Assembly: GCA_902785295.1 (NCBI GenBank)
Contig: CACZYK010000009.1
Location: 1 to 38,398 of the forward strand
From: an uncultured Clostridium sp.
GTDB lineage: Bacteria; Bacillota; Clostridia; Clostridiales; Clostridiaceae
Direction of reading: 5' to 3'
Length of the DNA stretch: 38,398 nucleotides
The notes below the pieces were generated by a model. That model was not told the origin of the DNA. It searched no databases and saw only the letters and a program-made list of their open reading frames with translations. Within the stretch, counting starts at the first letter, position 1; every line of letters starts with the position of its first letter. A program made the position numbers and the translations under genes. Positions 15,027 to 38,062 of this stretch are shown here, in pieces.

Positions 15027-15049
15027 AAATTTAATTTAAGACAAATAAT

Positions 15050-15273: not shown

Positions 15274-16728
<1,455 letters not shown>

Positions 16729-20873: not shown

Positions 20874-22274
20874 ATGGTAAGTGTATTTGATATAATTCCA
20901 AACAATTTTTTTAATCCTCTATCAAGTAACAGTAATTATAGGATTAATTCTGCTTTGCTTCAGTTTATATATAAACAATATGATAGTGAAATATCATATA
21001 GAATAAAAAGGAGTGTATTACGAGATGAATTAGCATATTTTATTTCAGAGAACTTCGAAGATTTAATGCTAGATAGTGATACAAATTCTAAAAGTTATCA
21101 GGAGATGGCAAGTGAATATATAAGGAGATTTGCAAGTAAAGATGTAGGGTGGCTTGAAGAAGAATTTGATGATTCAACTTTTGAAAAATATATAGTAATA
21201 ACAGAGCAAGGTGTTATGTTAGCAGAATTATTGATTCGATTAGAGCAACCTGAACGAGAAGAGTTATCAAGTTATATGTATAACATATATAATACATTAA
21301 TGAATGAAAAGCAATGGAATGGAGACCCTTACGTAGGTGCATTAAAAAATATATATAAAAATGCAAAAGCGTTATCAAAATCGCTAAAAAAAATGTCTAC
21401 ATATATTCGTAAAACAATTGAAAAGCTAATGAAAGAGGTTTCATATGAGAGTCTAACAGAAAATATCATTTCATATTGTGATGGTGATTTTATTAAGGAA
21501 TATGCTAGACTTACTAAACCACAAAATAATATTCACATATATCGTGATAAGATAATCACTATGCTAGAACAGATGCAAAATGACAAAGAAATGTATGATT
21601 TAATTATAATTGGATGTGTTAATGAAGAAGATATTGAGGAATGGGAGGCTAAAGAAAAAATAGAATTAATGTTTGATATAATAAAAAAATTTTTGAAAGA
21701 CGATTATTTGAGAATCATTGCTGATATTAAGCATAAATTGAATTTGTATATAACAATGGCATTAGGAAGATTGAGATATTTAAAAAATCATGAAGTTGAT
21801 ATGCGTGGAAATGTTGAAAGAACATTAAAATATATGTTGGATGTAATGAACGAATTAGAATTGCGAGAAGAGCTACCAGATGAAATGTCTGAACTTATTC
21901 GAATAAATCAAAATAAGTACATAGATATGCAATCAATAAAAATGCCACAAAGTAGAAGAAGAGTAAGGGTGAAGTCTGTTACAGAAATAGAAACTCTTAC
22001 AAAGGAAGATTTAGATAATTTGAAAAAAGTATATGAGAGAGAAGCTAAAAATCCTTATTCAAAAAAAATAACTAAGCAGTATTTAAAAACACTGATTGGA
22101 AACAAAAGTGAATTGAAAAGTAATGATATACCATTAAATACAAAAGAGGATTTGTTAATGATTCTGTCAGCAGTTGCATATGCAGAAGAAAATGGCTTTA
22201 AAGTTGAATTGGAAGATGGATATTTTGAGGTGGGAAATATGCTCTTGAGATCATTTAGAATATTGGAGGTGTAA
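20874..22274 (+). CDS. jetA: Wadjet anti-plasmid system protein JetA
   Basis: 466 residues, first gene of a four-gene Wadjet operon. JetA is the kleisin-like subunit that bridges the SMC-like JetC heads. The protein is rich in helices, begins VSVFDIIPNNFFNPLSSNSN as in DUF5716-type JetA, and has winged-helix-like ends. AAGGAG and AAGGTGA precede the ATG. jetB begins 1 base after the stop, so translation is coupled. The subtype is not certain. Gene order and a Clostridium host would suit the group tested from Clostridium sp. BNL1100 (type III), but profile comparison would be needed to decide. Confidence 0.88.
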   Translation: MVSVFDIIPNNFFNPLSSNSNYRINSALLQFIYKQYDSEISYRIKRSVLRDELAYFISENFEDLMLDSDTNSKSYQEMASEYIRRFASKDVGWLEEEFDDSTFEKYIVITEQGVMLAELLIRLEQPEREELSSYMYNIYNTLMNEKQWNGDPYVGALKNIYKNAKALSKSLKKMSTYIRKTIEKLMKEVSYESLTENIISYCDGDFIKEYARLTKPQNNIHIYRDKIITMLEQMQNDKEMYDLIIIGCVNEEDIEEWEAKEKIELMFDIIKKFLKDDYLRIIADIKHKLNLYITMALGRLRYLKNHEVDMRGNVERTLKYMLDVMNELELREELPDEMSELIRINQNKYIDMQSIKMPQSRRRVRVKSVTEIETLTKEDLDNLKKVYEREAKNPYSKKITKQYLKTLIGNKSELKSNDIPLNTKEDLLMILSAVAYAEENGFKVELEDGYFEVGNMLLRSFRILEV

Positions 22275-22275
22275 G

Positions 22276-22926
22276 ATGAATATTATAGATGCTTGGGATA
22301 ATTTCACATATTCAGAGAAGTTAATGTTTCAAAACTGTTGTAGAAAATTATTAAGAAGAACATTTCTAGTACGAGATAAGAAAGAGGATAAAAAACATTA
22401 TTTTTTTGTTGCTAATAAAATAGATATTTTTTTGGAATATTTCTCATTTATGGGGTTTGAAATTAAGTGTGATAAGGATAATGGAGTTATTATGCTTGAT
22501 AATTGTTCTTCTATAGAAGATAAGGAAAAGCTACAATCTAATAGGCATCGTTTTACCAAAGAAGAAACTATTGTATTATGTTGTTTGTGGCTTATTTATG
22601 TATCAAGAATAAAAGAAGGAACGTTATCACCAGTAGTAATAATAGGTGTTTCTGATTTAATATATGAATTAGAAAAATATGATGCAAGAGACATAGTTAA
22701 TAAAACAGCACTAGATAGTATTTTTAAAATATTTAGGAATTATAGTTTAATGGATGTTGATGGAAATATTGGAGATATAGATTGTAAACTTATATTGTAT
22801 CCATCTCTACAATTTGCTTTAGATACTAATGAGTTTGAAAGATTCGTAAAAGAAGTAGTAGAGGTTATATTTGGAAAAAATAGTTTGGGGGAGGATTCAG
22901 ATGAGCAAAGCGATGATATTGAATGA
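22276..22926 (+). CDS. jetB: Wadjet protein JetB (DUF4194-like, KITE subunit)
   Basis: 216 residues. JetB is the KITE/MukE-like subunit that binds JetA. The sequence shows tandem winged-helix character (FTKEETIVLCCLWLIYVSRI in the middle, IDCKLILYPSLQFAL toward the end) and an acidic tail (GEDSDEQSDDIE). GGAGGTGT precedes the ATG. Its last 26 bases overlap jetC, and the jetC ribosome site lies inside jetB. Identity rests mainly on position between jetA and jetC and general similarity. Confidence 0.85.
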   Translation: MNIIDAWDNFTYSEKLMFQNCCRKLLRRTFLVRDKKEDKKHYFFVANKIDIFLEYFSFMGFEIKCDKDNGVIMLDNCSSIEDKEKLQSNRHRFTKEETIVLCCLWLIYVSRIKEGTLSPVVIIGVSDLIYELEKYDARDIVNKTALDSIFKIFRNYSLMDVDGNIGDIDCKLILYPSLQFALDTNEFERFVKEVVEVIFGKNSLGEDSDEQSDDIE

Positions 22927-25900
22927 AAATAGTAGAAAAAGTGCAACCAAGCTTTTATTAGTAAACTGGTCTAGGTTTTCCAATGTAAGTATTTCTCTAA
23001 ATGGTTCAACACTATTTACTGGTGTTAATGGAAGTGGTAAATCCACCATATTAGATGCAATGACATATATGTTAACTGGGAATACTCAGTTTAATAAGGC
23101 TGCGTTAGACAAAGATAGAAATGTAATCTCATATGTTAGAGGAGATACAAAAAGTGAAGGGAAAAGTAGATTTATTCGTGAAGGTGAAGTAACATCTTAT
23201 ATTGCAATGGAATTTTGGTCTCCATTAGAAAAACAATATTTGGTTGTTGGCGTATGTATTGAATATGTGAATGAGACTAGTAATACAAAAAAGTGGTTTG
23301 TTTTCAAAGATACTAGAATTGATGATTGCAGGTTTTATACAGAAAAGGACAAAAAAGTAACAGTGTATCCACGTCAGGATTTAATAGTAAAAGGTAAGAA
23401 GGTATCATCAATTGAGTTTATGAATAGAGATAAAGGAACTGAACAGGTGTTACGAGCATTAGGTTTGCGTTGTGGAGTAGAAAAGTATAAAGCTAAACTT
23501 GTTAAAATGATGGCATTTAACCCAGAAAATAATATTGATAAATTTATTCAGGAATGTGTTCTAGATGAACATCCTATTCGCTCAATGAATGATATTAGAG
23601 AGCATCGAAAACATTATAATGATGCCAAAAATGTATATGAAGAATTAGCAAAAGGGAAACAACAATTAGAGATAGTTCAAAAAAAAATAACTGAATATGA
23701 GGCTGTAGAACGTAAATATGAAGTTAGGCGAATTCTTTTATTGTACCAAGATATGAAATGGCATCAAGAAAATCAAAAAAATTTAGAGCAAAAAATTGCT
23801 ATTGAAAATGCGAAATTACTTCAATTACAGAGTAATTTAAAAAATTTAATAGAAAAAAGAAAAAAAGCTTTAGATAGAAAAATTAATGCAGCAAAGAATG
23901 AACTATTATGTAATATAGAGGAAATCACAAAATCCTTAGAAAGTAGTATTTCTGCACTTGAAAAAGATATTGAAAAGTATAAGAATAGTTTAGAAGAGTT
24001 GAAACTATTAGAAAAAGGTATTCATGAGATTTTAAATTGGTTGGATTTAGGAAATAAATTAACAGAAAAAGATATTGCTATTATGGAAACTATTGCCTCA
24101 ACTACTTTTTATGTTGATGAAAAAGTAAGTGCATTTATAAAATTTAAAAATATAATAAATGTTAAAAAAGCAGAGTTTCAAAAAGATAACGTACATATAA
24201 ATGATAAAATCGATGAGATAGGAAAAGAATTGGAAGACATCCAAGAAAAGATATCCAAATTGGAATCAGACGTATTACCATTTGATAGAAAATATGAGGA
24301 AGCTAAGCAAAAAATAAAGGCTGAACTTGCAAAAATGAACATACAAACAGAGGTAAGATTGTTTGCAGAGCTAGTTCAACATGTTGATAAGGATTGGCAA
24401 TTGGCTATAGAAACTTTTTTAGGAAAAAAACGATTTGATATTGTTGTAGATGGTCAATATTGTGAAAAAGTAATGGAGATTGTACATAAAAATAAACTAA
24501 GAGATATTAAGGTTGTAATTACTGATAAATTACCTAATGTTGATATACAGGATATGTCGGCTGCAGCTATGCTTGATATTTCAAATGAATATGGCAGAAA
24601 ATATGCGAATTATTTACTTAATGGAATTCATTTGTGCAATGACATACAAGAGTTACATCAATATCCAAAAGGTGGATTGATGATGGATGGAACATTAGCA
24701 AAGAGTTTTACCATGAGTTATATGAACATGAAAAAAACTCAAATATATATGGGTAAGGATGCTATTAAACAACAGTTGAAAAGAGCAGAAGAAGATAAGG
24801 CTATATTGCAACAAGAAGAAAAAGAATTGATTGAAAAGTCTGCTATTCTTAATAAATATATATCTGATATTGAACATGTGAGTTGGGATGAAACAAGATA
24901 TATATTTAATGCACAGAAACTCATTGATGATAATACAACAGAAATGAAAAATAAAAAGGCGGAACTAGAAGAAATAAAAAACACTCCTGGCTTTACAGCA
25001 GCTTTACAGGAAAAAGAAAATGCTGACAAAGAATATAATGAGGTAGAAACACAATTTATTAAAGTAAATAATGACATCGGTTTATGTAAAAAAAACATTG
25101 AAAATAACAAAGAAAAGTATGATGTATCTGAACAAGAAATCAGTAATGCAAAAAATAAATATAATAATGCTATTTTACTAAGGTTAGAGCTAAGAAGAGA
25201 TGTGGAGGAATTATATTCTAAGCTTCGTGCTAAGAGTGATAGTGCACGTGTTATGTCATCTAAAAGTGTTGATAATGTCAGAGGAGAAAAAGATAATGTC
25301 ATAAGGGTTCTAGAAAATGAACAACGTAAATATTGGCATATAATAGGACAAAGCGATGAAAAATATGGAGTTGTATATATTTCTTTTTTCAGAGAACAAT
25401 ACAAAGATATTGCAAATGTAAAGATTGATGAGGCAAAACAAAAGTTAGAAGAACAACAACGTGTCTTGGAAAACGCATTCATGGTAGATTTTGTTGCGGA
25501 AATAAACGAAGCAATTAGGGTAGCTAGAGATGAAATTAACAACATTAATAAAGAACTTAAAGAGATTCCCTTTGGAAAAGATACATATCAATTTAAGATG
25601 AAAGAAAAGCCTGATAGAGCAATTTTTTTTAATCTATGTAAAAAGCTAGATAGTTATATGAATTCGATAGATATGTATAGAGTTGTAAATCAAAATGACG
25701 AGGAGATGGAGTATAATATAAGACAATTTATGAATACCATTCTAGAAGAGGAAAATGAGGAAGAGTATACAGATTATCGTAAGTACTTTAAGTATGATAT
25801 GGATATTTTATCAAGGCAGGATGGAGAAGAAACAACTGCTGAATTGTCCAAAAAGCAAGGCTCTGCAAGTAATGGTGAAAAGCAGACACCATATTTTATT

Positions 25901-26179
25901 ATTCTAGCAGCAAGTTTGTTACAATGCTATCCTAAAAATGTTTCTTGTGCAAGATTAGCATTTATTGATGAAGCATTTTCTGCTCTTTCTAGAGAAAGAA
26001 TAGAGCAAATGGTTAAGTATTTTGAAGACAATAAGTTTCAAGTTATTTATGCAGCACCTCCAGAAAAAATTGATAGTATAGGTTCTCATATTAATTCAAC
26101 AGTAAGTTTATGTATGAAAGGAAAGTATACATGGGCAGTTGAAGGGTTGGTGAAGTCTGATGAGTTTTCAACTGAATAA
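22901..26179 (+). CDS. jetC: Wadjet SMC-like ATPase JetC
   Basis: 1092 residues of SMC/MukB-like architecture. Walker A is GVNGSGKST (41-49) in an AAA_29-type head; a long charged coiled-coil region runs from about 240 to 880, with a hinge-like part near 480-570. The ABC signature SASNGEK is at 988-994 and Walker B LAFIDEAF has D1023/E1024. JetC is the motor that extrudes DNA loops on plasmids and feeds circular DNA to the nuclease. The ATG at 22901 is chosen over the in-frame upstream start at 22871 because GGGGGAGG lies at 22887-22894. It overlaps jetB by 26 bases and jetD by 20, which suggests translational coupling of the operon. Confidence 0.93.
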   Translation: MSKAMILNENSRKSATKLLLVNWSRFSNVSISLNGSTLFTGVNGSGKSTILDAMTYMLTGNTQFNKAALDKDRNVISYVRGDTKSEGKSRFIREGEVTSYIAMEFWSPLEKQYLVVGVCIEYVNETSNTKKWFVFKDTRIDDCRFYTEKDKKVTVYPRQDLIVKGKKVSSIEFMNRDKGTEQVLRALGLRCGVEKYKAKLVKMMAFNPENNIDKFIQECVLDEHPIRSMNDIREHRKHYNDAKNVYEELAKGKQQLEIVQKKITEYEAVERKYEVRRILLLYQDMKWHQENQKNLEQKIAIENAKLLQLQSNLKNLIEKRKKALDRKINAAKNELLCNIEEITKSLESSISALEKDIEKYKNSLEELKLLEKGIHEILNWLDLGNKLTEKDIAIMETIASTTFYVDEKVSAFIKFKNIINVKKAEFQKDNVHINDKIDEIGKELEDIQEKISKLESDVLPFDRKYEEAKQKIKAELAKMNIQTEVRLFAELVQHVDKDWQLAIETFLGKKRFDIVVDGQYCEKVMEIVHKNKLRDIKVVITDKLPNVDIQDMSAAAMLDISNEYGRKYANYLLNGIHLCNDIQELHQYPKGGLMMDGTLAKSFTMSYMNMKKTQIYMGKDAIKQQLKRAEEDKAILQQEEKELIEKSAILNKYISDIEHVSWDETRYIFNAQKLIDDNTTEMKNKKAELEEIKNTPGFTAALQEKENADKEYNEVETQFIKVNNDIGLCKKNIENNKEKYDVSEQEISNAKNKYNNAILLRLELRRDVEELYSKLRAKSDSARVMSSKSVDNVRGEKDNVIRVLENEQRKYWHIIGQSDEKYGVVYISFFREQYKDIANVKIDEAKQKLEEQQRVLENAFMVDFVAEINEAIRVARDEINNINKELKEIPFGKDTYQFKMKEKPDRAIFFNLCKKLDSYMNSIDMYRVVNQNDEEMEYNIRQFMNTILEEENEEEYTDYRKYFKYDMDILSRQDGEETTAELSKKQGSASNGEKQTPYFIILAASLLQCYPKNVSCARLAFIDEAFSALSRERIEQMVKYFEDNKFQVIYAAPPEKIDSIGSHINSTVSLCMKGKYTWAVEGLVKSDEFSTE

Positions 26180-27383
26180 AATACAGGAAGATGTACTAAA
26201 CATTTTATTGGATATATATGAAAAAAGTGTTACATATAAAGGTGAAAATGTTCGAAATCAAAGTTTTACTATAAAACCAGAAAAAGTTTTTCCAGAGTAT
26301 AATGGAGATTTTACAGATCAAGATGATGTGGATCAATTTAATAGAGATATACAATCATTAGTAGATGCTAATCTTATAATGGTAGATTATGTTAAAGGTA
26401 CTTCAGTAATTATAAAAATAAAACTTAATATTAATTTAATATCTGATGTATATAAAGTGTTGAAGAGAGAAGATGTGACTCAAAAACGTTACCATGAGAT
26501 TGAAATGTATTCTGAATATTTGGGTACACACTATATTATAGATGTGTTTTGCAAGGAACAGATTGAACGACTTAAGAATTATAAAGATGCTAAGTATACT
26601 GCTGATATTGCAATAAATATTTTGAAATTGTTAAAAGTTGTGTTGAACAATAAGCAAAATATTATGGAGCGAGAATTATCCATAGCGGTATTGGGAGATA
26701 CAAAACTGTTTGAAAAAAGTTATAGGTCGCGTATTTGCAAAATTATTGAAAAATATGGAGACTTAGATATAGATTTTTCTGCTCTTGATGAAAAGGAAAA
26801 AGAAAAAGTAATTTTGGGGGAATTTCAAGTTTTTTCAAATCCATCATATGTTTTTTTAAAAGGAAATGTTGAAATTCTCTATGATGATGGGAATATTCTT
26901 AATATAAATCCATATAATCCAATAGCTATTTCGTCGGAAGTAATAGGTAGGATTAAAAAGATAAAAGTAAACTCTAGCAAAATAGTTACTGTTGAAAATC
27001 TTACTTCGTATAACAGAATTAATGATGACAAATCTACTTTTATTTTTTTGAGTGGATATCATAATACTGATAAACAGAGATTTCTAAAAAAAATAGCAGA
27101 ATATAATAAAGAGGTAATATGGTATCATTTTGGAGATATTGATCCTGATGGATATTACATTTTAAGAAATCTAATAAATAAAACAGGAATTCCTTTTGTA
27201 CCGTTATATATGGGTATAGAGCAATTGGAGCGTTTTAAAAAATATTGCAAGCATCTTGAGAAAAATGATGTTATCAAGGCAAAAACATTGATTAATAATC
27301 ATTTTTATGATGAAGTTATGAACTATATGTTGGAAAATGACTGCAAATTAGAACAAGAAATTATAAGTTGGTTAAATAGGTGA
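26160..27383 (+). CDS. jetD: Wadjet Toprim nuclease JetD
   Basis: 407 residues. JetD is the topoisomerase VI-like nuclease that cleaves plasmid DNA held by JetABC. The N-terminal half is winged-helix and arm-like. The C-terminal DUF2220-type Toprim domain shows E279 in VENLTSYN and the metal-binding pair D326/D328 in FGDIDPDG, so the active site looks intact. The start overlaps the end of jetC by 20 bases, with GGTGA at 26149-26153 as ribosome site. No clear terminator follows on the plus strand. Confidence 0.9.
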   Translation: MSFQLNKIQEDVLNILLDIYEKSVTYKGENVRNQSFTIKPEKVFPEYNGDFTDQDDVDQFNRDIQSLVDANLIMVDYVKGTSVIIKIKLNINLISDVYKVLKREDVTQKRYHEIEMYSEYLGTHYIIDVFCKEQIERLKNYKDAKYTADIAINILKLLKVVLNNKQNIMERELSIAVLGDTKLFEKSYRSRICKIIEKYGDLDIDFSALDEKEKEKVILGEFQVFSNPSYVFLKGNVEILYDDGNILNINPYNPIAISSEVIGRIKKIKVNSSKIVTVENLTSYNRINDDKSTFIFLSGYHNTDKQRFLKKIAEYNKEVIWYHFGDIDPDGYYILRNLINKTGIPFVPLYMGIEQLERFKKYCKHLEKNDVIKAKTLINNHFYDEVMNYMLENDCKLEQEIISWLNR

Positions 27384-27476
27384 ATTCAGAACTCTTGTTA
27401 TATGGTTTGAGTGCATAATCTTAGGATGGATAGTGATATAAAATAATAGAGGAACCAACAAATACCGATTCCTCTA

Positions 27477-27555
27477 AAAAATATGCCCTTGAACCACGTA
27501 GGACCTCAAGGTACTTTCAATCATATTATATGCTGATTAATCACTTTTAATCAGT
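27477..27555 (-). ncRNA. Predicted small RNA with its own promoter, abiF-RNA-like position
   Basis: On the minus strand a perfect TTGACA (27590-27585), exactly 17 bases, then TACAAT (27567-27562) predicts a start near 27555. The transcript would open with a hairpin (27554-27547 with 27540-27533, 8 bp), run through an unpaired A/T-rich link and form a second hairpin (27511-27506 with 27492-27487, with a G-C-rich inner part), ending in TTTTTT (27482-27477). A third hairpin (27476-27469 with 27454-27447) could be a back-up terminator. It sits just past the 3' end of the Abi_2 remnant on the same strand, where the published abiF RNA motif is found. Membership in that family is inferred from position, not aligned. 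Confidence 0.55.
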
Positions 27556-27608
27556 AAAATTATTGTAAATAAAAGATAAGAGTTTGTCAAGTACTGAAAA
27601 GAGAGTTT

Positions 27609-27831
27609 TCAAAGAGTTTTTAAACATCTCCAGTTATTTGGTATTCCCATTATACCACGAATTTTTTTTATAGAGATAGTGGATAATTGACTATCTAACT
27701 TGTTAAATAAATTTTCTATTTGCTTATGATAATCCTGATAGCGTTTATTATATCTCCTTTGTTTCAGCAATTTCATTTATAGTAGTTTTAAGAACTGTAT
27801 TCAGATAGAAGGATATGGCATTGTCTTTCAT
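27609..27831 (-). pseudogene. Remnant of an Abi_2 (AbiD/AbiF) abortive-infection gene
   Basis: Minus-strand reading gives MKDNAISFYLNTVLKTTI and on to a stop (about 27831-27751). A +1 shift then continues as YQDYHKQIENLFNKL, through ISIKKIRG, to IMGIPNNWRCLKTL and a stop at 27611-27609. The ending resembles the C-terminus of Abi_2 proteins (hydrophobic, then MGxPxNW). The N-terminal two thirds are missing and at least one frameshift is present, so it is not functional. The flanking 27832-27960 shows no coding remnant I can defend. Confidence 0.5.
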
Positions 27832-28000: not shown

Positions 28001-31000
28001 ATGAAGCAACCTAAGATGCTAGATAATAAGAGTAATAGAAGAGTTGGGGATGAATTAAAAAATGAAATAAAAGTTAATTCTAAATTATCTATAATTTCTG
28101 CTTACTTTTCTATATATGCTTATAAAGAATTAAAAAGTGAATTAAGTAAAATTGATAGTTTGAGATTTCTATTTACAGAACCAACCTTTGTTAATAATAA
28201 GGAAAAGGTTAAAGAGTATTATATTGATAATAAATCAGAAAAAAATATTACTGGTACTGAATTTGAAATAAAATTGAGGAATGAAATGAATCAGTCAAGA
28301 ATATCTAAGGAATGTGCTGAGTGGATAAAGAAAAAGGTTGAAATTAAATCTTTAAGAAAACCTAATCCAGCACAACAACGTCTTATATATATTGAAAATG
28401 AAGCTGCTGATGAAAATGTTTCAATTAATGGAAGTGTAGATTTTACAACAGATGGATTAGGATTTTCTTCGTCAAGCAGAATAGATATAAATATGTGTAT
28501 GTATGGTAAAGAATATACAAAGCAGTTTCTTGAAAGTTTTGATAAGGTATGGAATGATAATTCATTAGTAGAAGATGTTAAGGCTAAGATGTTAGAACAT
28601 ATGAAAAATATTTATAAAGAAAATACCCCACAATTCATATACTTTGTGACATTATATAATATTTTTAAGGACTATCTTGGAGAATTAACTGAAGAAAATA
28701 TTGTTAAAACTAAAATAGGATTTAAAGAAACTGTTATTTGGAATAAATTATATAAGTTTCAGAAGGATGGCGTAATTGGAGTTATTGATAAATTAGAGAA
28801 ACATAGAGGATGTATTTTAGCAGATTCAGTAGGGCTTGGCAAGACTTTTTCTGCTTTAGCAGTAATAAAATATTATGAATTAAGAAACTATAGAGTACTT
28901 GTGTTAACTCCTAAAAAATTAAGAGAAAACTGGACTATATATACCCAAAATGATAAACGAAATATTCTATTAAAGGATAGGTTTAACTATGATGTATTAA
29001 ATCATACTGATTTATCAAGAGAAAGTGGGTATTCAGGAGAAATTAATTTAGAAACATTAAATTGGAGCAACTATGACCTTGTGGTTATAGATGAATCACA
29101 TAATTTCAGAAACAATAATGCTAGAAATAATAAAGTAACAAGATATTCAAAGTTATTAAATGATGTTATAAAAAGTGGTGCTGAAACAAAAATATTAATG
29201 TTATCTGCTACTCCTGTAAATAATAGGATGAATGATTTGAAAAATCAAATTAATTTTATTACTGAATGTGAAGATGATGCCTTTCAAGAAGATGGTATTG
29301 ATAGCATAGAATTAACTTTAAGAAAAGCTCAATTAATTTTTAATAGATGGACTAATCTTGAAGAAGATGAGAGAACAATTGATAATTTTATAGAAATGAT
29401 GAATATGGATTATTTCAAGTTATTAGATGCTGTAACAATTGCAAGGTCAAGAAAGCATATTGAAAAATATTACAACATAAATGAAATTGGAAAATTTCCA
29501 AAAAGATTAAAGCCTATAAATGTGAAATCAGAAATAGATTCACTTAATAAATTTCCAAAATTACAATATGTAAATAAAATAATAAAAAATCTTAATCTTG
29601 CTACATATTCACCACTTAAATATGTTTTACCAGAAAAAAGAAAAGAGTATGATAAAAAATATGATATATCAGTAAAGGGTGGAAAATCAATATTTAAACA
29701 GGTAGATAGAGAACAAAGTCTTGTTAATTTAATGAGAGTAAACATACTAAAAAGAATGGAAAGTTCCATAAATTCTTTTGGAATTACTGTAGCAAAATTA
29801 CTTAAACAAATTGATTATGTGCTAGATAAAATAGATAAAAAACAATTTGATTATGATGCTAATTTAAATATTGGAGACATTGAAATAGATGACCCTATTT
29901 TAGAAGATTCTTTAGTGGGCAATAAAGTTAAGGTATTAATTCAAGATATGGACTTAATAAGATGGAAACAAGATTTATTAGATGACCAAAGAAAATTAGT
30001 AGAACTTCTTATAGATGCAAAAAAGGTAGTAAATGAAAGAGATGCTAAACTAATAAAACTTAAAGAAATAATTGCAAATAAGATTAATCATCCTATTAAT
30101 GATAACAATAAAAAGATAATTATATTTTCAGCTTTTGCAGATACAGCTGAATACCTATTTGAGAATATATCAGAATGGTTAATGAAAGAATTTAATATAA
30201 ATACTGCATTAGTTACAGGTAGTGGAGAAAATAAGTGTACATTAAAGAATATTAAGAGGAAAGATTTAAATTCAATACTTATAAATTTCTCACCAATATC
30301 AAAGGAAAGAAATATTTATGCAGATGATGAAAAAGAAGAAATTGATGTACTTATTGCAACAGATTGTATTTCTGAAGGACAAAACTTGCAAGATTGTGAT
30401 TATCTTATCAACTATGATATCCATTGGAACCCAGTTAGAATAATCCAGCGATTTGGTAGAATAGACAGAATAGGCTCCAAAAATGATGTTATACAACTTG
30501 TTAATTTTTGGCCCAACATGGAACTTGATGAATATATCAATTTAGAAGCAAGAGTAAATGGAAGAATGGTATTACTAGATGTTTCTGCAACTGGAGAAGA
30601 AAATTTAATAGAAGACAATGAAAAATCACAAATGCATGACTTGGAATATAGAAAAAAGCAATTAAAAAAATTGCAAGAGGAAGTTGTTGACCTAGAGGAT
30701 ATTTCAGGAGGAATATCTATTACAGATTTGACAATGAATGATTTTAAGATGGATTTAATGGAATATATGAAAATACATAGAGAAGAATTAGAAAAAGCTC
30801 CTTTAGGTATGTATGCTGTTGTTAAAAATACAGATAATGATATGAAGGATGTAATTAAGCCTGGTGTTATTTTTACATTAAGACAAGTTAGCAATGCAAC
30901 GTCAAAACCAGAAGAAAGTAATCCACTAAAAGAATATTATATGGCATATGTTTATGATGATGGAACTGTTAAATATAATTACATTCATGCTAAAAATGTA

Positions 31001-31261
31001 TTAGATATTTATAAGAAATTATGTTGTGATAAAAATGAAGTGTTAAATGATATTGTAGAGGTATTTAATAAAGAAACAAATAATGGTAAAGATATGAAGA
31101 AGTATTCTAAACTACTTGAAAGTGCAATAGATAATATAATTGGCAAAAAAGAAGAAAAAGGTATTGCCTCATTATTCAGTAAAGGTGGCACCATGATTCA
31201 AAAGAGTTTATTTAAAGGTATTGAGGATTTTGAACTTGTTTCATTTATTGTAATTAAGTAG
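28001..31261 (+). CDS. SNF2-type helicase with degenerate phospholipase-D-like N-terminus
   Basis: 1086 residues. The N-terminal 190 residues look like the PLD-like domain of helicase-related proteins (IISAYFSIYAYKELK; GSVDFTTDGLG at about 146-156), but the catalytic His-x-Lys is not found, so it is probably not a nuclease. A superfamily 2 SNF2 motor follows: Walker A DSVGLGKT (275-282), DESH (364-367), SATP (402-405), and motif VI QRFGRIDRIGS from 816. Ribosome site AAGAGGT. The next gene overlaps its end closely and the set continues into mod and res, so it is probably an accessory motor of that system. Confidence 0.87.
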   Translation: MKQPKMLDNKSNRRVGDELKNEIKVNSKLSIISAYFSIYAYKELKSELSKIDSLRFLFTEPTFVNNKEKVKEYYIDNKSEKNITGTEFEIKLRNEMNQSRISKECAEWIKKKVEIKSLRKPNPAQQRLIYIENEAADENVSINGSVDFTTDGLGFSSSSRIDINMCMYGKEYTKQFLESFDKVWNDNSLVEDVKAKMLEHMKNIYKENTPQFIYFVTLYNIFKDYLGELTEENIVKTKIGFKETVIWNKLYKFQKDGVIGVIDKLEKHRGCILADSVGLGKTFSALAVIKYYELRNYRVLVLTPKKLRENWTIYTQNDKRNILLKDRFNYDVLNHTDLSRESGYSGEINLETLNWSNYDLVVIDESHNFRNNNARNNKVTRYSKLLNDVIKSGAETKILMLSATPVNNRMNDLKNQINFITECEDDAFQEDGIDSIELTLRKAQLIFNRWTNLEEDERTIDNFIEMMNMDYFKLLDAVTIARSRKHIEKYYNINEIGKFPKRLKPINVKSEIDSLNKFPKLQYVNKIIKNLNLATYSPLKYVLPEKRKEYDKKYDISVKGGKSIFKQVDREQSLVNLMRVNILKRMESSINSFGITVAKLLKQIDYVLDKIDKKQFDYDANLNIGDIEIDDPILEDSLVGNKVKVLIQDMDLIRWKQDLLDDQRKLVELLIDAKKVVNERDAKLIKLKEIIANKINHPINDNNKKIIIFSAFADTAEYLFENISEWLMKEFNINTALVTGSGENKCTLKNIKRKDLNSILINFSPISKERNIYADDEKEEIDVLIATDCISEGQNLQDCDYLINYDIHWNPVRIIQRFGRIDRIGSKNDVIQLVNFWPNMELDEYINLEARVNGRMVLLDVSATGEENLIEDNEKSQMHDLEYRKKQLKKLQEEVVDLEDISGGISITDLTMNDFKMDLMEYMKIHREELEKAPLGMYAVVKNTDNDMKDVIKPGVIFTLRQVSNATSKPEESNPLKEYYMAYVYDDGTVKYNYIHAKNVLDIYKKLCCDKNEVLNDIVEVFNKETNNGKDMKKYSKLLESAIDNIIGKKEEKGIASLFSKGGTMIQKSLFKGIEDFELVSFIVIK

Positions 31262-31270
31262 GTGAATTAT

Positions 31271-32026
31271 ATGGAGAATAGGTTATATGAGTACATGAAT
31301 ATACCAGAGAACTGTAGAATTGATAAAACAGTATTTAAAAAATTATTTTATGAAAATGCAATAATGAGTAAAAATGATAAAGAAGTATTTAAAAATGATA
31401 TAGATAAAATAACTATTAAATATTCATTAAAAGAAGAATATTTGAATATACCAACATTTAATGATGATGAATTAAATTATGATGAAATAGAAATACTTGA
31501 AGTTAATTTAGTTAATGATAATAAATATCAAAGAATATGTGAAATTATACAAAAAACAATACCATATCCTATGATTATTGTATTAACTTATAATGAAAAA
31601 ATACTTATAAATGTAGCATATAAACGTGTAAATAAAAATGATGCAGAGAAAAATACAGTTGTTAAATATATTTATAGTGATTGGATTAGTTTTGATCATG
31701 TTAATAATAATGAACAACAATTTTTAAATTCTATAAATATATCTAAGCTATCTTACATTAATATGTACAAGCTATACTGTAGTTTTGTTCAAAAAATAGA
31801 TATATTAAATACTTCTGAAATTGCTGGAACATTTGATGAACTTGAAAATAGAGATATAGAGGAATTACAAGAAATTCAAAAGAAGATTTTGGATATAGAT
31901 AATGAATTAAGAAAGCTTAACAATTTGATAGATAAGGAAGAACAATTTAATAGAAAAGTAGAGCTAAATATTAAAATAAAAAAATGCCAAACAAAGAAAA
32001 TAGAATTGATAAATTCATTAAGATAG
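31271..32026 (+). CDS. DUF4391 domain protein
   Basis: 251 residues, matching in my reading the DUF4391 family that accompanies such helicase and type III restriction genes. The N-terminal half is alpha/beta (PYPMIIVLTYNEKILINVAYK). The C-terminal 60 residues are a charged coiled coil (ELQEIQKKILDIDNELRKL). No catalytic motif is seen. The ATG at 31271 is preferred to the in-frame GTG at 31262, because AGGTGA (31260-31265) overlaps that GTG and fits the ATG. The stop of the helicase gene forms part of this ribosome site, so the two are translationally coupled. Function unknown; it may be a bridging or specificity subunit. Confidence 0.7.
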   Translation: MENRLYEYMNIPENCRIDKTVFKKLFYENAIMSKNDKEVFKNDIDKITIKYSLKEEYLNIPTFNDDELNYDEIEILEVNLVNDNKYQRICEIIQKTIPYPMIIVLTYNEKILINVAYKRVNKNDAEKNTVVKYIYSDWISFDHVNNNEQQFLNSINISKLSYINMYKLYCSFVQKIDILNTSEIAGTFDELENRDIEELQEIQKKILDIDNELRKLNNLIDKEEQFNRKVELNIKIKKCQTKKIELINSLR

Positions 32027-32061
32027 ATTAATAATTTATAGCATTAGCATGGGGGACAAAA

Positions 32062-34020
32062 ATGAAAGAGACAATTAATGATGAATTAAAAATAAAGGAT
32101 ATAGATACTATTGAAAAAATAAATGGAGAAAGCTTAGATATAGTTAAGGAAAACGTTAAAAAGTTAAAAGAAATTTTCCCAGAAGTATTTTGTGAAGATA
32201 AGATTGATTTTAAAAGATTAAAAGAGGTGCTTGGAGAATATACTGATGATAGTGATGAAAGATATAGATTTGAATGGCATAAAAAATCAAAAGCAATAAA
32301 ATTGTCACAAACTCCATCTAAAGGTACATTAAGACCTTGCAAAGAAGAAAGCAAAAATTGGGAGACTACAGAAAATTTATACATAGAAGGAGATAACCTT
32401 GAAGTATTAAAACTTCTTCAAAAGAGCTATCAGGGAAAGATAAAGATGATATACATAGACCCTCCATATAATACTGGAAATGATTTTATATATCCAGATA
32501 ATTACAGGGATAATATAGAAAATTATTTAAAAATTACAGGACAAAAAGATGAAGAAGGAAATAAAATATCAACTAATTCTGAAACGGATGGAAGCTATCA
32601 CACTAAGTGGCTGAATATGATGTATCCTAGATTAAGATTATCTAAAAATTTATTACATAAAGATGGAATTATGTTTGTAAGTATAGATGATAATGAAGTA
32701 GAAAATTTAAAAAAGATTTGTGATGAGATATTTGGAGAAAGTAATTTTATTGCATATTTTACATGGATAAAAAAGAAAAAAGGAAGCCATTTGTCTAAGA
32801 CTGTAAGGAATATGACAGAATATATTTTATGTTATGCTAAAGAAATAAATAAAATAGAATTATTTGGTGAAGAAGCTTATTCAGATAAATGGCAACCATT
32901 AGTAAAAAGAACTAATGCTCATAAAATTTTAGTATTTCCATCAAATGAAGTTGAGACAAAATTAATTGATGGTGAATATGAAGCAGGGGTTTATGGAGAA
33001 GGAACATCATCATTAGAGTTTATGGAAAATTTTATTGTTCATAATAATAAAGTAAAAACCAAGATTAAGGTTAATGGACCATTTGTATGGACTCAAGGTA
33101 AGTTGAATGAAGAAATAGAAAAAGGAACTAAGATATCATTGTCATCAAAATTTGGGTTTAATGTATTTAGGTCTGATCAAGAAGAAAAGATAAAAAGACC
33201 AATAACAATTTTGGATTCAAAATTGAACATTGGAACTAATGAAGATGCCTATAAAGAAATTATTAGTATTTTTGGTAAGGAGGGAATTATGAGTTATCCT
33301 AAACCTATATCATTAATAAAATATTTAATTAGAACTATTAGTTATTATTATAAAGATATGATAGTATTAGATTTCTTTTCCGGTTCATCAACAACAGCAC
33401 ATGCAGTTATGCAATTAAATGCAGAAGATAAAGGAAATAGAAAATTTATTATGGTTCAATTGCCAGAAGAATGTGACGAAAATTCAGAAGCTTATAAAGC
33501 AGGATATAAAAATATATGTGAAATAGCCAAAGAGCGTATAAGAAGAGCTGGAGATAAAATTGTTGAGGAAAATAAAGATAAAGAAGGAATAGAAAATTTA
33601 GATATAGGCTTTAAAGTATTTAAGCTTGCTAAATCAAATATTAAACCTTGGAATCCTGATTATGATAATTTAGAAATGACTTTAGAAGACAGTATTAATA
33701 ATTTTGTTCCAGGAAGGACAGAAGAAGATATAGTATATGAAATAATGCTTAAGTATGGAATTGACTTAACATATCCTGTTGATGTTAAGGAGGTTTGTGG
33801 TAAAAAAATATTTAGTATTGGATTTGGGGCATTAATTGTTTGTTTAGATAGTGAAATTACTTTAGAATTAGTAAATGAAATTGTTAAATATAAAAATGAA
33901 TTAAATCCTAAAATTTGTAGAGTAGTATTTAGAGATAATGGTTTTAAGACTGATAGTGTAAAAACTAATGCTATAGAAATATTACATAGAAATAATATAA
34001 AAGAGATTATGAGTATATAG
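32062..34020 (+). CDS. mod: Type III restriction-modification methyltransferase (Mod)
   Basis: 652 residues, a normal Mod length. It is a beta-class N6-adenine methyltransferase: catalytic motif IV DPPYNTG starts at D133, and the AdoMet-binding motif I DFFSGSSTTAHA starts at D437. The roughly 300 residues between hold the target-recognition domain (around 200-400), so the recognised sequence cannot be read off. AGGGGGACA-like ribosome site before the ATG. No simple-sequence repeat that would suggest phase variation is inside the gene. res follows after 12 bases, forming the Mod-Res complex. Confidence 0.93.
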   Translation: MKETINDELKIKDIDTIEKINGESLDIVKENVKKLKEIFPEVFCEDKIDFKRLKEVLGEYTDDSDERYRFEWHKKSKAIKLSQTPSKGTLRPCKEESKNWETTENLYIEGDNLEVLKLLQKSYQGKIKMIYIDPPYNTGNDFIYPDNYRDNIENYLKITGQKDEEGNKISTNSETDGSYHTKWLNMMYPRLRLSKNLLHKDGIMFVSIDDNEVENLKKICDEIFGESNFIAYFTWIKKKKGSHLSKTVRNMTEYILCYAKEINKIELFGEEAYSDKWQPLVKRTNAHKILVFPSNEVETKLIDGEYEAGVYGEGTSSLEFMENFIVHNNKVKTKIKVNGPFVWTQGKLNEEIEKGTKISLSSKFGFNVFRSDQEEKIKRPITILDSKLNIGTNEDAYKEIISIFGKEGIMSYPKPISLIKYLIRTISYYYKDMIVLDFFSGSSTTAHAVMQLNAEDKGNRKFIMVQLPEECDENSEAYKAGYKNICEIAKERIRRAGDKIVEENKDKEGIENLDIGFKVFKLAKSNIKPWNPDYDNLEMTLEDSINNFVPGRTEEDIVYEIMLKYGIDLTYPVDVKEVCGKKIFSIGFGALIVCLDSEITLELVNEIVKYKNELNPKICRVVFRDNGFKTDSVKTNAIEILHRNNIKEIMSI

Positions 34021-34032
34021 GGGGAAGCTATT

Positions 34033-36981
34033 ATGGAATTAAAGTTTGATTCAGAACTTGATTATCAAAAAGAAGCTATAGCCTCTATAGTTGATATATT
34101 TAATGGACAAAGAGTTACACAGTCTAATTTTACAGTTTTATCTAACATTGATGAAGTAGGAACAGTAGGTAAGTTAGTTACTGAGCATGGAGTAGGTAAT
34201 AAATTAGAATTAGATGAAGAGGATATATTAAAAAATGTGAATAAAATTCAACTTGAAAATGGTTTGAAGCAGTCAACACTAAAAGAGCTGCAAAAAGATA
34301 ATTATTATTTTACAATAGAAATGGAAACTGGTACTGGAAAAACTTATGTTTATTTAAGAACTATTTTTGAATTAAATAAAAAATATGGTTTTACTAAGTT
34401 TGTAATTATGGTGCCATCAGTTGCAATTAAAGAAGGTGTAATGAAATCTATTGCAATAATGAAAGAGCATTTTAAGGAATTGTATGATAATGTTATTTTT
34501 GAGTCTTATGAATATAAATCTCAAAAGCTTGATGTATTTAGAGATTTTGCTACAAGTGACAATATAAGAATTATGATTATGACAATCCAATCAATAGAGA
34601 AGGATAATAATATTATTAACATTGAAAATGAAAAAACAAATGGATTAAAGCCAATTGAGTTTCTTCAAGAAACTAATCCAATAATAATAATTGATGAACC
34701 ACAAACTACAATAAGTACAGAGAAACGAAGAGATAGTGTCAATTCATTAAATCCATTATGCAAAATAGGTTATTCTGCTACACATGAATATAAAATTAAT
34801 CTTATGTATAGACTTAACGCTGTTGATGCTTATGAAAAGCAACTTGTAAAACAAATAGAAGTGGCAAGTTTAATAAGTAGGGATAGTCATAATGAAGCTT
34901 ATATAAAACTTATTAGTGTAAGTAATAAAAACAATAAAATAAGAGCAAAAATTCAATTTGATAAATGGGATTCAAAAAAAGGAGATATAGTTAGAACAAC
35001 TAAAGAATTTAAATTTGGAGATGATTTAAAAGAATTATCAGGAAATAGAGAAATATATAATGGTTATATAATAACTGAGATAAATGCAAAAGCAGGAAAT
35101 GAGTTTGTGGATTTTTCAGGGGCAGACATAATTAGATTAGGTGAAGTTCGTGGTGAAGTAAATGATGATATTGTAAAGAGAACACAAATCAGAAAGACTA
35201 TTGAAGAACACTTAAATAAGGAATTAGTATTAAAGCAACATGGCATTAAAGTATTAAGCTTATTTTTCATTGATAAGGTTGCAAATTATAGATATTATGA
35301 TGATAAGGGAAATCCTCATAAAGGTAAATATGCTATTTGGTTTGAAGAAGAATATAAAAATGCAATAAAAAAGCCTAAATATAATACCTTATTTAATGAT
35401 GTAGATATAGAATCAGAAGCAGAAGAAGTTCATGGAGGATATTTTGCTAAGGATAAGAAAGGAAAGTTTAAGGATACTAATGGAACAAGTGCAGCAGATG
35501 AAGATGAATACAATCTTATTATGAAGGATAAGGAAAAGTTACTTAGTTTTGATAGTAAGTTAAAATTTATTTTTTCACATTCCATGCTAAGAGAGGGATG
35601 GGATAATCCTAATGTATTTCAAATATGTACATTAAATGAAACAAAATCTACAATGAAGAAGAGACAGGAAATAGGTAGAGGTCTAAGACTTGCAGTAAAT
35701 CAAGATGGAGAGAGAATTCAAGGATTTAATGTAAATACTCTTACAATAATGGCTAACGAAAGTTATGATGATTTTGCTAGAACACTTCAACATGAATATG
35801 AAAAAGAAGAAGGTATTAAATTTGGAGTTGTAGAAAGTCATACCTTTGCAAATATAGTTGTTGAATCAGACGAAGAAACAGAATATTTAGGAGAGGAAAA
35901 ATCAAATGTAATATTTAATTGTCTTAAAGATAATAATTATATTGATGATAAAGGTAAGGTAACTGATAAGCTAAAAAAAGACTTAAAGGATAACTTGCTT
36001 AAAGTTCCAGATGAATTTATAGAACAAAAACCACAAATTATAGAAACTTTAAAGAAAATTTCAGGAAATTTAAATATAAAAAATGCAGAGGATAAAAAGC
36101 AAGTAAAATTAAACAAGGCAAGATATTTAAGTCCAGAATTTAAAGAACTATGGGATAAAATAAAATATAAAACAACGTATTCAGTAGATTTTGATTCTAA
36201 AGAACTTATAAAAGAATGTGCAGATGAAATACAAAGAACTTTAAGTGTAAATAAAGTGAAGCTATTATATACAAAAGCAGAATTAGATATTAGTAAAGCT
36301 GGTACTATTGCAGCAGAAATAAACAGAACAACTGAAGATGCTGGTGAATACAGATTTGATTTACCAGATATTATTACTTTTCTTCAAAATGAAACAAGAC
36401 TTACAAGAAAAACTATAGTATCAATATTATTAAATTGTGGCAGATTAGATTCTTTTAAAGTTAATCCTAGAGCTTTTATGGATGAAGTGTTAAAAATCAT
36501 AAAAAGAAAAATGAGATTAAAAATAGTAGATGGTATTAAATATCAAAAATTAGGTGATGATGAATATTATGCACAAGAACTATTTAATACTGAAGAGTTA
36601 TATGGATATCTATCAAAAAATATGATAGAAAGTAAAAAATCTGTTTATGAGTATATAGTTTATGATTCAGGAGTTGAAGCAGAATTTGCACAAAAATTTG
36701 AAAAAAATGAAGACGTAAAAATGTATGTGAAATTACCAGATTGGTTTAAAGTAGATACCCCACTTGGAAGCTATAATCCTGATTGGGCAGTTATGATAGA
36801 AAAGAATGGAGAAGAAAAACTTTATTTTGTTGTGGAAACCAAAGGAAACATTTTGGCAGAGGAACTAAGAGAAAGAGAATATAGAAAAATTCAATGTGGT
36901 CATAAACATTTTGAAGCACTAGATACTGGTGTTATATTTACTGAAACTGATAGTTTTGAAAAATTTAAGGAAAATATATAA
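34033..36981 (+). CDS. res: Type III restriction enzyme helicase-nuclease (Res)
   Basis: 982 residues. An SF2 helicase begins with Walker A METGTGKT (97-104); DEPQ (221-224) serves as motif II; SATHEYK and the motif VI-like RQEIGRGLRLAV follow. A C-terminal PD-(D/E)xK nuclease is seen as YNPDWAVM (P916, D917) and VVETKG (E935, K937). All catalytic residues are present. It acts with Mod on unmethylated, suitably oriented sites. It ends at 36981, and no clear terminator follows before the tandem repeats. Confidence 0.93.
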   Translation: MELKFDSELDYQKEAIASIVDIFNGQRVTQSNFTVLSNIDEVGTVGKLVTEHGVGNKLELDEEDILKNVNKIQLENGLKQSTLKELQKDNYYFTIEMETGTGKTYVYLRTIFELNKKYGFTKFVIMVPSVAIKEGVMKSIAIMKEHFKELYDNVIFESYEYKSQKLDVFRDFATSDNIRIMIMTIQSIEKDNNIINIENEKTNGLKPIEFLQETNPIIIIDEPQTTISTEKRRDSVNSLNPLCKIGYSATHEYKINLMYRLNAVDAYEKQLVKQIEVASLISRDSHNEAYIKLISVSNKNNKIRAKIQFDKWDSKKGDIVRTTKEFKFGDDLKELSGNREIYNGYIITEINAKAGNEFVDFSGADIIRLGEVRGEVNDDIVKRTQIRKTIEEHLNKELVLKQHGIKVLSLFFIDKVANYRYYDDKGNPHKGKYAIWFEEEYKNAIKKPKYNTLFNDVDIESEAEEVHGGYFAKDKKGKFKDTNGTSAADEDEYNLIMKDKEKLLSFDSKLKFIFSHSMLREGWDNPNVFQICTLNETKSTMKKRQEIGRGLRLAVNQDGERIQGFNVNTLTIMANESYDDFARTLQHEYEKEEGIKFGVVESHTFANIVVESDEETEYLGEEKSNVIFNCLKDNNYIDDKGKVTDKLKKDLKDNLLKVPDEFIEQKPQIIETLKKISGNLNIKNAEDKKQVKLNKARYLSPEFKELWDKIKYKTTYSVDFDSKELIKECADEIQRTLSVNKVKLLYTKAELDISKAGTIAAEINRTTEDAGEYRFDLPDIITFLQNETRLTRKTIVSILLNCGRLDSFKVNPRAFMDEVLKIIKRKMRLKIVDGIKYQKLGDDEYYAQELFNTEELYGYLSKNMIESKKSVYEYIVYDSGVEAEFAQKFEKNEDVKMYVKLPDWFKVDTPLGSYNPDWAVMIEKNGEEKLYFVVETKGNILAEELREREYRKIQCGHKHFEALDTGVIFTETDSFEKFKENI

Positions 36982-37080: not shown

Positions 37081-37197
37081 ATAGCATAAGTACTTAATTT
37101 AAGTGTTTCAATAATAAGAGCAATTTTAGCAGAAATGTGGAAGATGTATTACCATTATGAAGTAATAGTAATAGAACAATATTGGTTTGGAGGTGGA

Positions 37198-37644
37198 ATG
37201 GTGATAACAATATTTAAGGATAAAAAGGATATACCACAAGATATAGAATATGTAGAATTAAATGATATTTATTTTAATCAGAATACCTCTTCCATTCTTG
37301 ATGATAGAGCTAAGAAAATAATAGAAGTAATTGATGGCTCAAAGTTAATCAGCAAATACAAAATATGTTCGAGATTCGATGGCATTACATTAGACATAGA
37401 TAAGTTATCAGCTGGTTGCAAGACAGTATTGAATGTGCTTTATAACCCAGATAAAGTGTTCTGTTTAAAAGAATGTGGAAATAATGCTTTAGAGATATTA
37501 TATGGTTTAGAATCTGGAAAGGTATATAGTGATTATGCGTTAATTCCTTTTGATATGAAGGCTGTAAATGTGCAAACTGCATCTGGTACAAAGGTAATTA
37601 GTGACTATGAAGAGTTAAAGGAGTGGTGGAGCCATGAAGAGTAA
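37198..37644 (+). CDS. DUF4869-like protein
   Basis: 148 residues from the ATG at 37198. GGAGGTGG (37189-37196) precedes it, and the adjacent in-frame GTG at 37201 is an equally good start by spacing. The segment DKLSAGCKTVLNVLYNPDKV with ECGNNALEIL (about 69-101) resembles DUF4869 proteins, which have LSGGVK and CGDNCA in the same places. No catalytic motif, signal or membrane segment is seen. It overlaps the following P-loop gene by 11 bases, so the two form a coupled pair. Function unknown. Confidence 0.65.
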   Translation: MVITIFKDKKDIPQDIEYVELNDIYFNQNTSSILDDRAKKIIEVIDGSKLISKYKICSRFDGITLDIDKLSAGCKTVLNVLYNPDKVFCLKECGNNALEILYGLESGKVYSDYALIPFDMKAVNVQTASGTKVISDYEELKEWWSHEE

Positions 37645-38062
37645 GCCGAATGTTATGGATCATTTTTCTACTGTTCACACTTCATTTATTGTAGATTTTA
37701 AATTTACAAACAATATCACGATATTGACAGGAGATTCTGGAATAGGAAAAACAGCATCATTCTTATTTATAAAAGAGTGCATAGCTATTAATCCTGATAT
37801 TATCTGCTTAAATTATTTGGATTATCATAAAGATATAAATAATATTATAAAAACAGCAGAAGGTAAGCTTATCGTCATAGATAATGCAGATATTCTTTTG
37901 GATGATAATATAAGAAAATATATTGCATTAGATGATAAGAATCAATATTTAATTATTGGAAGGAATCCAAAGAATCTGTTTGCCACAAAGGAAAACCTGT
38001 TTGAGTTGGTAAGTGAAAAAGTTGGGGAGCAGACAAAACTAATGATTAAACCATATTTATAG
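37634..38062 (+). CDS. Small P-loop NTPase paired with the DUF4869-like protein
   Basis: 142 residues. Walker A is TGDSGIGKT (32-40) and a Walker B-like strand is LIVIDNAD (79-86). Only one core strand order is visible and no sensor or lid motifs follow, so it is a minimal nucleotide-binding domain rather than a full AAA+ protein. The start overlaps the upstream gene, with GGTGGAG as ribosome site. It may be a small GTPase- or kinase-like partner. I do not recognise a family and do not assign a function. Confidence 0.7.
   Translation: MKSKPNVMDHFSTVHTSFIVDFKFTNNITILTGDSGIGKTASFLFIKECIAINPDIICLNYLDYHKDINNIIKTAEGKLIVIDNADILLDDNIRKYIALDDKNQYLIIGRNPKNLFATKENLFELVSEKVGEQTKLMIKPYL

What the first reader, a model, noticed from the sequence alone, without database searches (positions are those of the whole stretch)
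27440..27590. Preserved small RNA beside a dead Abi_2 gene
A consensus promoter on the minus strand feeds a compact two-hairpin RNA with a T-run, directly beyond the 3' end of a decayed Abi_2 reading frame. Abi_2 genes are known to carry a structured RNA (abiF motif) near their 3' ends, and AbiF proteins have been discussed as RNA-controlled toxins related to Cas13. Here the RNA appears intact after loss of the protein, so it could be an orphan antitoxin that neutralises AbiF from incoming elements.
Basis: partly seen in the sequence, partly recalled or inferred. Interest (0 to 1): 0.75.

Follow-up and report, generated by a model that had tools for sequence, protein, structure and literature searches.

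The report
Orphan Abi_2 antitoxin-like RNA
Beside the stump of a dead defence-toxin gene, this bacterium keeps a small RNA gene of the kind that normally holds such toxins in check; the same kind of RNA also turns up alone in other bacteria and in phages, where it may work as a ready-made antidote.

Summary
On the minus strand lie an 11/12 promoter, a hairpin, a terminator hairpin with a T-run, and just upstream a 55-codon stump matching the C-terminal end of Abi_2 proteins. The RNA is not the Rfam abiF motif (no match). It fits a different RNA family, not matched by Rfam 15 in my scans, that lies directly upstream of abi_2 in 85 of 90 fetched loci of the Abi_2 subfamily that the stump resembles. 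Two covariance models built without the window rank this place first in the window and in the 3.2-Mb genome, though with low scores (genome-wide E 0.1). The RNA is orphaned: no abi_2 follows it, and the stump lacks the HEPN part. Orphaning recurs: of 12 loci found by the RNA alone and kept, 6 have no abi_2 in the DNA held and 3 a broken one; of 27 viral stretches with the exact 24-base core, 15 lack abi_2, several lying among head or terminase genes. By analogy with RCd22 and PbAbiF, the RNA should bind and silence Abi_2; orphans may be antidotes. For the window copy this is unproven, and it may be decaying. Known kind, new variant; the phage orphans are the most interesting part.

The parts
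27609..27776 (-). Abi_2 C-terminal stump, 55 codons plus stop; the part with the HEPN motif is absent
   Evidence: blastp to C-termini of L040 (1.8e-8) and L035 (5.7e-7) in a database of 47 proteins; HMM positions 260-308 of 311, 28.4 bits
27562..27590 (-). SigA-type promoter TTGACA-17-TACAAT
   Evidence: 11 of 12 matches; 42 of 58 intact relatives examined also have 11 or more upstream of the RNA
27533..27554 (-). A+T-rich leader hairpin; counterpart in relatives not tested
   Evidence: fold
27524..27534 (-). leader box AGCATATAATA, shared with RNAs of the L082 type at about the same distance from the hairpin tip
   Evidence: alignment of model R2 to the window; A3
27511..27518 (-). 5' element GAAAGTAC, counterpart of GAACGTAC/GATCATAC before the stem in relatives
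27487..27511 (-). core antitoxin-like hairpin CCTTGA-GGT-CC(TACGT)GG-T-TCAAGG
   Evidence: models R1 and R2, top place in window and genome
27440..27476 (-). terminator hairpin with T-run; probable RNA 3' end

Best explanation
The feature is a divergent, orphaned copy of a small antitoxin-type RNA that normally lies directly upstream of, and by analogy keeps in check, an Abi_2 (AbiD/F) HEPN toxin. SHOWN: stump of the matching Abi_2 subfamily; promoter, leader box, hairpin tip and terminator in family order; no abi_2 gene for it. INFERRED: the RNA is still transcribed from its own promoter, folds into the hairpin with the CC(UACGU)GG tip, and can bind an Abi_2 dimer and block its RNase site, so that the cell is protected when an Abi_2-bearing element arrives. 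I put membership of the RNA family at about 0.85, and continued function in trans at about 0.4; a decaying relic is as likely.
For: Best hit of R1 and R2 in the window (E 0.0013 each; next hits 14.1 and 15.9 bits) and in the whole genome, beside the only Abi_2 remnant recognised there (PF07751 search empty at E 1; that model would miss another C-terminal stump). Four runner-up places of R1 are plain terminators without the tip. Stem pairs covary: 24 double-change cells, 0 of 500 shuffles, without the window; the window itself shows the rare A-U for the usual G-C at pair 17-31. Promoter as in intact loci. The subfamily's proteins are Pfam Abi_2, and L082 matches PbAbiF 8vz6 at 1.3e-12, whose RNA blocks its RNase (PMC12737573, passages); [quoted passage not shown] Orphans recur.
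Against: The window copy scores 21.3 bits with R1 where accepted copies score about 25-57. Genome-wide its E-value is 0.109, and in the two many-genome searches, with stricter filters, the window's own genome gave no match at E 0.1 or 0.001. Plain terminators reached 27.7-31.7 bits among 391 genomes. The outermost stem pair is lost, the U-run is displaced by about 5 nt, and the core hairpin is no more stable than shuffles. No transcript data. No near relative of this locus was found (98 genomes), so selection on this copy could not be measured.
Confidence: 0.62

Rival explanations
1. Relic: the RNA is the leftover of a former RNA-abi_2 cassette (or tandem pair of cassettes), trimmed from one side near the Snf2/type III R-M module and from the other near the Wadjet operon; it has no present function and is decaying.
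For: Low score, lost outer pair, displaced U-run; protein reduced to 55 codons; other genomes show abi_2 genes broken behind the RNA (G162, G310, and by eye G403; a frame split as in G310 may also be a sequencing error).
Against: Promoter still 11 of 12; six consecutive stem pairs and the tip are intact, one pair by a double change; phage orphans keep about 40 nt almost unchanged.
Confidence: 0.4
2. Chance: an ordinary intrinsic terminator and A+T-rich sequence that happen to resemble the models.
For: Genome-wide E 0.109; terminators can reach 27.7-31.7 bits in large searches; core fold z -0.95.
Against: It is the top place for two models and sits next to the only recognised stump, of the right Abi_2 subfamily; the runner-up terminators lack the CC-GG tip; the leader box also matches in register.
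Confidence: 0.1
3. Exapted terminator: orphan hairpins are kept only because hairpin plus U-run ends transcription of the gene before them.
For: Several chromosomal orphans follow a gene on the same strand (L195, L196, L198) or a tRNA (L189) and have no good promoter.
Against: Does not explain the 5' GAACGTA (7 of 11 distinct phage orphans) and the nearly unchanged tip in otherwise unrelated phages; in the window no live gene lies upstream to be terminated, the promoter is kept, and a separate terminator follows.
Confidence: 0.15

Closest known systems
RCd22-AbiFCd of Clostridioides difficile (PMC12373285: abstract, outline, section 6, part 1 of 2 of section 13, and passages seen)
   Same: SigA promoter, short structured RNA with terminator, Abi_2 protein; there the RNA acts in cis and in trans
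   Different: RCd22 carries two Rfam abiF motifs and lies upstream of a live gene; the window RNA has no abiF match, one core hairpin and no toxin gene
PbAbiF-AbiFr, PDB 8vz6 (seen through passages of PMC12737573; the original paper of Zilberzwige-Tal et al. was not fetched and not read)
   Same: the L082 Abi_2 protein is homologous to PbAbiF (E 1.3e-12)
Rfam RF03085 abiF RNA
   Same: RNA beside abi_2 genes; found upstream of abi_2 in L029
   Different: no match in the window, nor in 14 Abi_2 loci of which 11 carry an R1 hit
Pseudo-ToxI of phage PhiTE (PMC3475682: abstract and outline)
   Same: a phage carries a stand-alone copy of a type III antitoxin RNA and uses it against the host's toxin
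   Different: ToxIN is another toxin family; there the copies are repeats that expand in escape mutants

Membership tests
Rfam abiF RNA (RF03085) | match to the covariance model | tested here: not met
   no match, even at E 10
RNA family upstream of L082-type abi_2 (defined here, models R1/R2) | match to models built without the window | tested here: met
   top place in window and genome, but low bits (21.3, 28.4) and genome-wide E 0.109
RNA family upstream of L082-type abi_2 (defined here, models R1/R2) | 7-bp stem, three unpaired bases, CC-(4-5 nt)-GG tip, one unpaired base, U-run | tested here: inconclusive
   6 of 7 outer pairs and the tip present; outermost pair A.G; U-run about 5 nt late
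RNA family upstream of L082-type abi_2 (defined here, models R1/R2) | directly 5' of an abi_2 gene | tested here: not met
   no abi_2 follows; the stump lies 5' of the RNA; orphans elsewhere share this lack
Abi_2 (PF07751) toxin | HEPN RxxxxH domain | tested here: not met
   only 55 C-terminal codons recognised
Type III toxin-antitoxin RNA antitoxin | RNA binds and neutralises the toxin | not testable with these tools
   needs binding and rescue assays

The most novel reading that the evidence does not exclude
Free-standing copies of an about 40-nt Abi_2 antitoxin RNA, carried by phages inside late-gene clusters and next to integrases and by bacterial chromosomes including the window, form a widespread RNA-only counter-measure against Abi_2/AbiF, the toxin group from which Cas13 is thought to descend.
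Probability: 0.45. Interest if true: 0.82.

Novelty: new variant of a known kind. Interest (0 to 1): 0.62.

Why it matters
Abi_2/AbiF toxins with RNA antitoxins are regarded as the root of Cas13 (PMC12373285 and PMC12737573, passages). An antitoxin-type RNA family that Rfam 15 did not match in my scans, and above all its stand-alone copies in phages and chromosomes, would give a directly testable case of RNA antidotes escaping from their toxin and being used in the phage-host conflict; the one precedent I saw is PhiTE pseudo-ToxI. It also suggests that decayed Abi loci should be read for their RNA and not only for the lost protein.

Tried and rejected
Rfam at gathering score and at E 10: no abiF; the four weak matches at E 10 lie far below their gathering scores and look like chance. 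Pfam scan of three pieces of the remnant region: no Abi_2; only the 55-aa piece proved to be Abi_2, and the 31-aa and 28-aa pieces stay unassigned. DNA search of the region in 98 relatives: 36 genomes had a match, the window's own among them; the others were short (at most 69 nt) and taken as A+T-rich chance, not followed further; the same in phages and plasmids. tblastn of the 55-aa piece in plasmids and phages: best E 10 and 0.4. One pattern scan had 0 hits; another had 7, all without the rest of the hairpin, taken as chance. blastn of one family RNA (L083) in phages: 2 records at E 0.5, covering the leader and not the hairpin; in plasmids: none. So these two annotated collections add no support for the phage orphans, which rest on the IMG/VR viral contigs. 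Dropped before counting: G042 (23.5 bits, no tip, inside a gene) and six plain terminators judged by eye to lack the CC-GG tip, G201, G240, G269, G301, G306 and G371. The pair L214/L222 was not used for selection, because the 300 nt after the RNA are as identical as the RNA. Two controls of the pair count do not stand out: pair types (242 of 500 shuffles as high) and, less so, pairs with a double change (16 of 500).

Literature: nine searches of a library that lacks most subscription journals; no listed title was about orphan Abi_2 antitoxin RNAs in phages. The paper of Zilberzwige-Tal et al. on AbiF and Cas13 was not read and may describe this RNA family. A phage sk1 region protecting phage 712 from AbiF (Rince 2000) was seen only as a title in a reference list.

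Full report
What is there. On the minus strand of the window, between the 3' end of a Wadjet operon (jetD ends at 27383, plus strand) and a Snf2 helicase gene (starts at 28001, plus strand), lie in order: a 55-codon open frame (27776-27609), a promoter TTGACA-17-TACAAT (27590-27562), and an RNA-like unit ending in a strong terminator hairpin with a T-run (27476-27440). The promoter matches 11 of 12 positions; 1 of 100 shuffles of the 100 nt before the RNA model's match does as well, while weaker promoter-like sites are no commoner than in shuffles.

The dead gene. The 55 residues align to the very C-terminal end of intact Abi_2 proteins from relatives (32% over 53 residues to L040, E 1.8e-8, and to L035, 5.7e-7, in a database of 47 proteins). 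An HMM of 101 Abi_2 proteins hits it at positions 260-308 of 311 with 28.4 bits; of 1000 shuffles, 902 were reported, the best at 10.5 bits. The part with the HEPN motif is missing. A PF07751 search of the whole genome finds no Abi_2 at E 1; that model does not cover the C-terminus, so it misses this stump and would miss another like it.

The RNA is not the abiF motif. Rfam 15 gives no abiF match in the region at gathering score or at E 10, although the same library finds abiF upstream of an intact abi_2 in a same-genus genome (L029).

It fits another family. From the L035/L082 protein (Clostridium chromiireducens) and an alignment of six Abi_2 proteins headed by it I collected 90 loci of its Abi_2 subfamily: the 80 genome loci (the best 80 of 211), and ten viral ones, L066 and L067 and L162-L169. 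L068, also, was left out; its abi_2 starts 6 nt from the end of the stretch. In 85 of the 90, model R1 finds a hairpin directly upstream of abi_2: a 7-bp stem, three unpaired bases, a CC-(4-5 nt)-GG tip, one unpaired base, then a U-run. The 90 include the 18 sequences from which R1 was built, and many of the rest are close relatives of one another. The five without are L093, L094 (a copy about 950 nt upstream), L123 (only 52 nt held upstream of the match), L157 (a weak hit, E 0.78) and L168. In 58 of the 85, picked by hand, I scored promoters: 42 reach 11 or more matches and 54 reach 10, against a shuffled mean of 8.1. Rfam gave no match in 14 Abi_2 loci, 11 of which carry an R1 hit, and only tRNAs in eight phage orphan loci. 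In the 18-sequence alignment without the window, 99.4% of cells pair, with 24 double-change cells against a shuffled mean of 7.3, none of 500 shuffles reaching it; the number of pair types does not stand out. The sequences had been picked by a script that asked for at least six pairs, so the percentage leans upward; the double changes do not follow from that. The proteins are Pfam Abi_2 (six of six tested), and L082 matches PbAbiF, PDB 8vz6, at 1.3e-12.

The window belongs to it, weakly but consistently. R1 places its best hit in the window at 27522-27478 (21.3 bits, E 0.0013; next 14.1 bits). R2, 69 positions with the leader, built from 17 sequences without the window, does the same (28.4 bits, E 0.0013; next 15.9), helped by the box AGCATATAATA, which matches in register. 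I chose the R2 sequences after seeing that likeness. Over the whole 3.2-Mb genome this place is again first for both models (E 0.109 each; R1 next 20.0 bits, 140 of 140 candidates scored; R2 no other hit, 150 of 3410 candidates scored), and the four runner-ups of R1 are plain terminators without the tip. The window replaces the usual G-C at pair 17-31 by A-U. Against it: accepted copies score about 25-57 bits with R1; the outermost pair is lost, the U-run is late, and the core hairpin alone is no more stable than shuffles (z -0.95). In the many-genome searches with stricter filters the window's own genome gave no hit. R1 also picks up plain terminators with 27.7-31.7 bits when hundreds of genomes are searched.

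Position. Family RNAs lie 5' of abi_2; in 12 of 90 loci a second copy lies directly 3', but on the opposite strand, and in none directly 3' on the same strand. In the window the RNA is 3' of the stump on the same strand, and no abi_2 follows it. Either a second cassette was lost on the Wadjet side or the RNA came independently; I cannot decide.

Orphans recur. Searching by the RNA alone, 6 of 68 same-genus genomes (E up to 0.1) and 14 of 391 class genomes (E up to 0.001; only 16 candidates scored per genome) had hits. After dropping G042 and six plain terminators, and counting G043 once, 12 loci remain: 3 with an intact abi_2 (G099, G354, G448), 3 with a broken one (G162 with an internal stop, G310 split over two frames, G403 with an abi_2 start read by eye that soon stops and is not significant by HMM, E 0.34), and 6 with none recognised in the stretch held (G019, G043, G045, G048 and G245, 12 kb each; G337, 7.3 kb). 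Of these six, G019, G043, G045 and G048 had no PF07751 match at E 1e-5 in the whole genome; G245 and G337 have an Abi_2 on another contig.

Phages. An exact 24-base core pattern hits 27 viral stretches: 12 have abi_2 directly downstream (in L217 split over two frames, in L204 cut by the end of the stretch) and 15 have none recognised in the DNA held, 11 after merging near-identical flanks. A further pattern adds L235. Seven of the 11 carry exactly GAACGTA right before the core, though the pattern did not ask for it. Genes near the orphans are phage genes: terminase subunits (L202, L209, L212, L227), head proteins (L208, L216), portal (L218), integrases (L210, L214, L215, L225). Apart from the near-identical pair L214/L222 and two short matches elsewhere (L202/L209, L208/L216), the copies share, within 1 kb on either side, only a stretch of 24-75 nt at the RNA, mostly about 40 (blastn). 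In L202 and L209 the RNA is 97.5% identical over 40 nt, while the small terminase is 44% and the large terminase 21% identical; in L208 and L216 it is 94% over 48 nt, while the minor head protein is 61% and the major head protein 30% identical. That points to selection on, or mobility of, the RNA alone. Of the 18 orphans scored besides the window, 5 have a promoter of 10 or more matches (L197, L210, L218, L225, L235); the others would seem to depend on read-through. Searches of the annotated phage and plasmid collections with one family RNA found no copy.

How it most likely works. RCd22 binds AbiFCd and neutralises it in cis and in trans (PMC12373285; abstract and passages), and AbiFr blocks the RNase of PbAbiF (PMC12737573, passages). 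The RNAs here have the same genetic arrangement beside homologous proteins, so an antitoxin role is the natural inference; no step of it was tested. An orphan copy could protect its bearer from an Abi_2 in trans; phage PhiTE does this against ToxIN with pseudo-ToxI (PMC3475682, abstract). For the window copy I hold the antidote and the relic reading about equally likely.

Verdict. Observation confirmed; abiF label not met; orphan-antitoxin idea partly supported and widened. The window element by itself is modest; the recurrence of orphans, above all in phages, carries most of the interest.

Noticed in passing
window 20874-27383 (+): Complete type I Wadjet operon jetA-jetB-jetC-jetD (Pfam and PADLOC).
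   Followed up: partly
window 28001-36981 (+): Snf2-type helicase (PADLOC C3a139), DUF4391 protein, type III methyltransferase and type III restriction enzyme in a row: a second defence module, whose arrival may have removed the N-terminal part of the abi_2 gene.
   Followed up: partly
window 15033-15130 (+): Purine riboswitch, 69.9 bits, before the ORF at 15277.
   Followed up: no
window 37135-38062 (+): DUF4869 protein followed by a small ATPase-like ORF that weakly resembles LmuB and JetD2.
   Followed up: no
L121, L130, L133, L137-L140, L142, L144, L145, L147, L152: abi_2 flanked by two copies of the RNA, the 3' copy on the opposite strand (12 of 90 loci).
   Followed up: partly
L120 and L125, upstream of abi_2: Two tandem copies of the RNA before one abi_2, as in double-motif RCd22.
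   Followed up: no
L038, L039, L041, L044, L045 upstream of abi_2: A different conserved RNA-like stretch (GTGATCG..GTTAC..GATAC.., with variations) before other Abi_2 proteins. R1 hits it only in L044 and weakly (18.2 bits, E 0.048), so it may be a distant relative; in L038, the one of them scanned, no Rfam match.
   Followed up: partly
L042 upstream of abi_2: Two hairpins with CC..ACG..GGG tips in tandem, CCTTG..CAAGG and CCTAA..TTAGG, resembling the window hairpin but not found by R1 at E 0.1.
   Followed up: no
L031 and L032 (near-identical): abi_2 flanked on both sides by abiF-like RNAs that share AAGCCTAT..GCGTAACA, the 3' one followed by a terminator-like hairpin; not reported by Rfam at gathering score.
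   Followed up: no
L189 5952-6064 and L212 6142-6262: Orphan RNA directly behind a tRNA gene (tRNA-Gly, tRNA-Ile), so it may be released from a tRNA transcript.
   Followed up: partly
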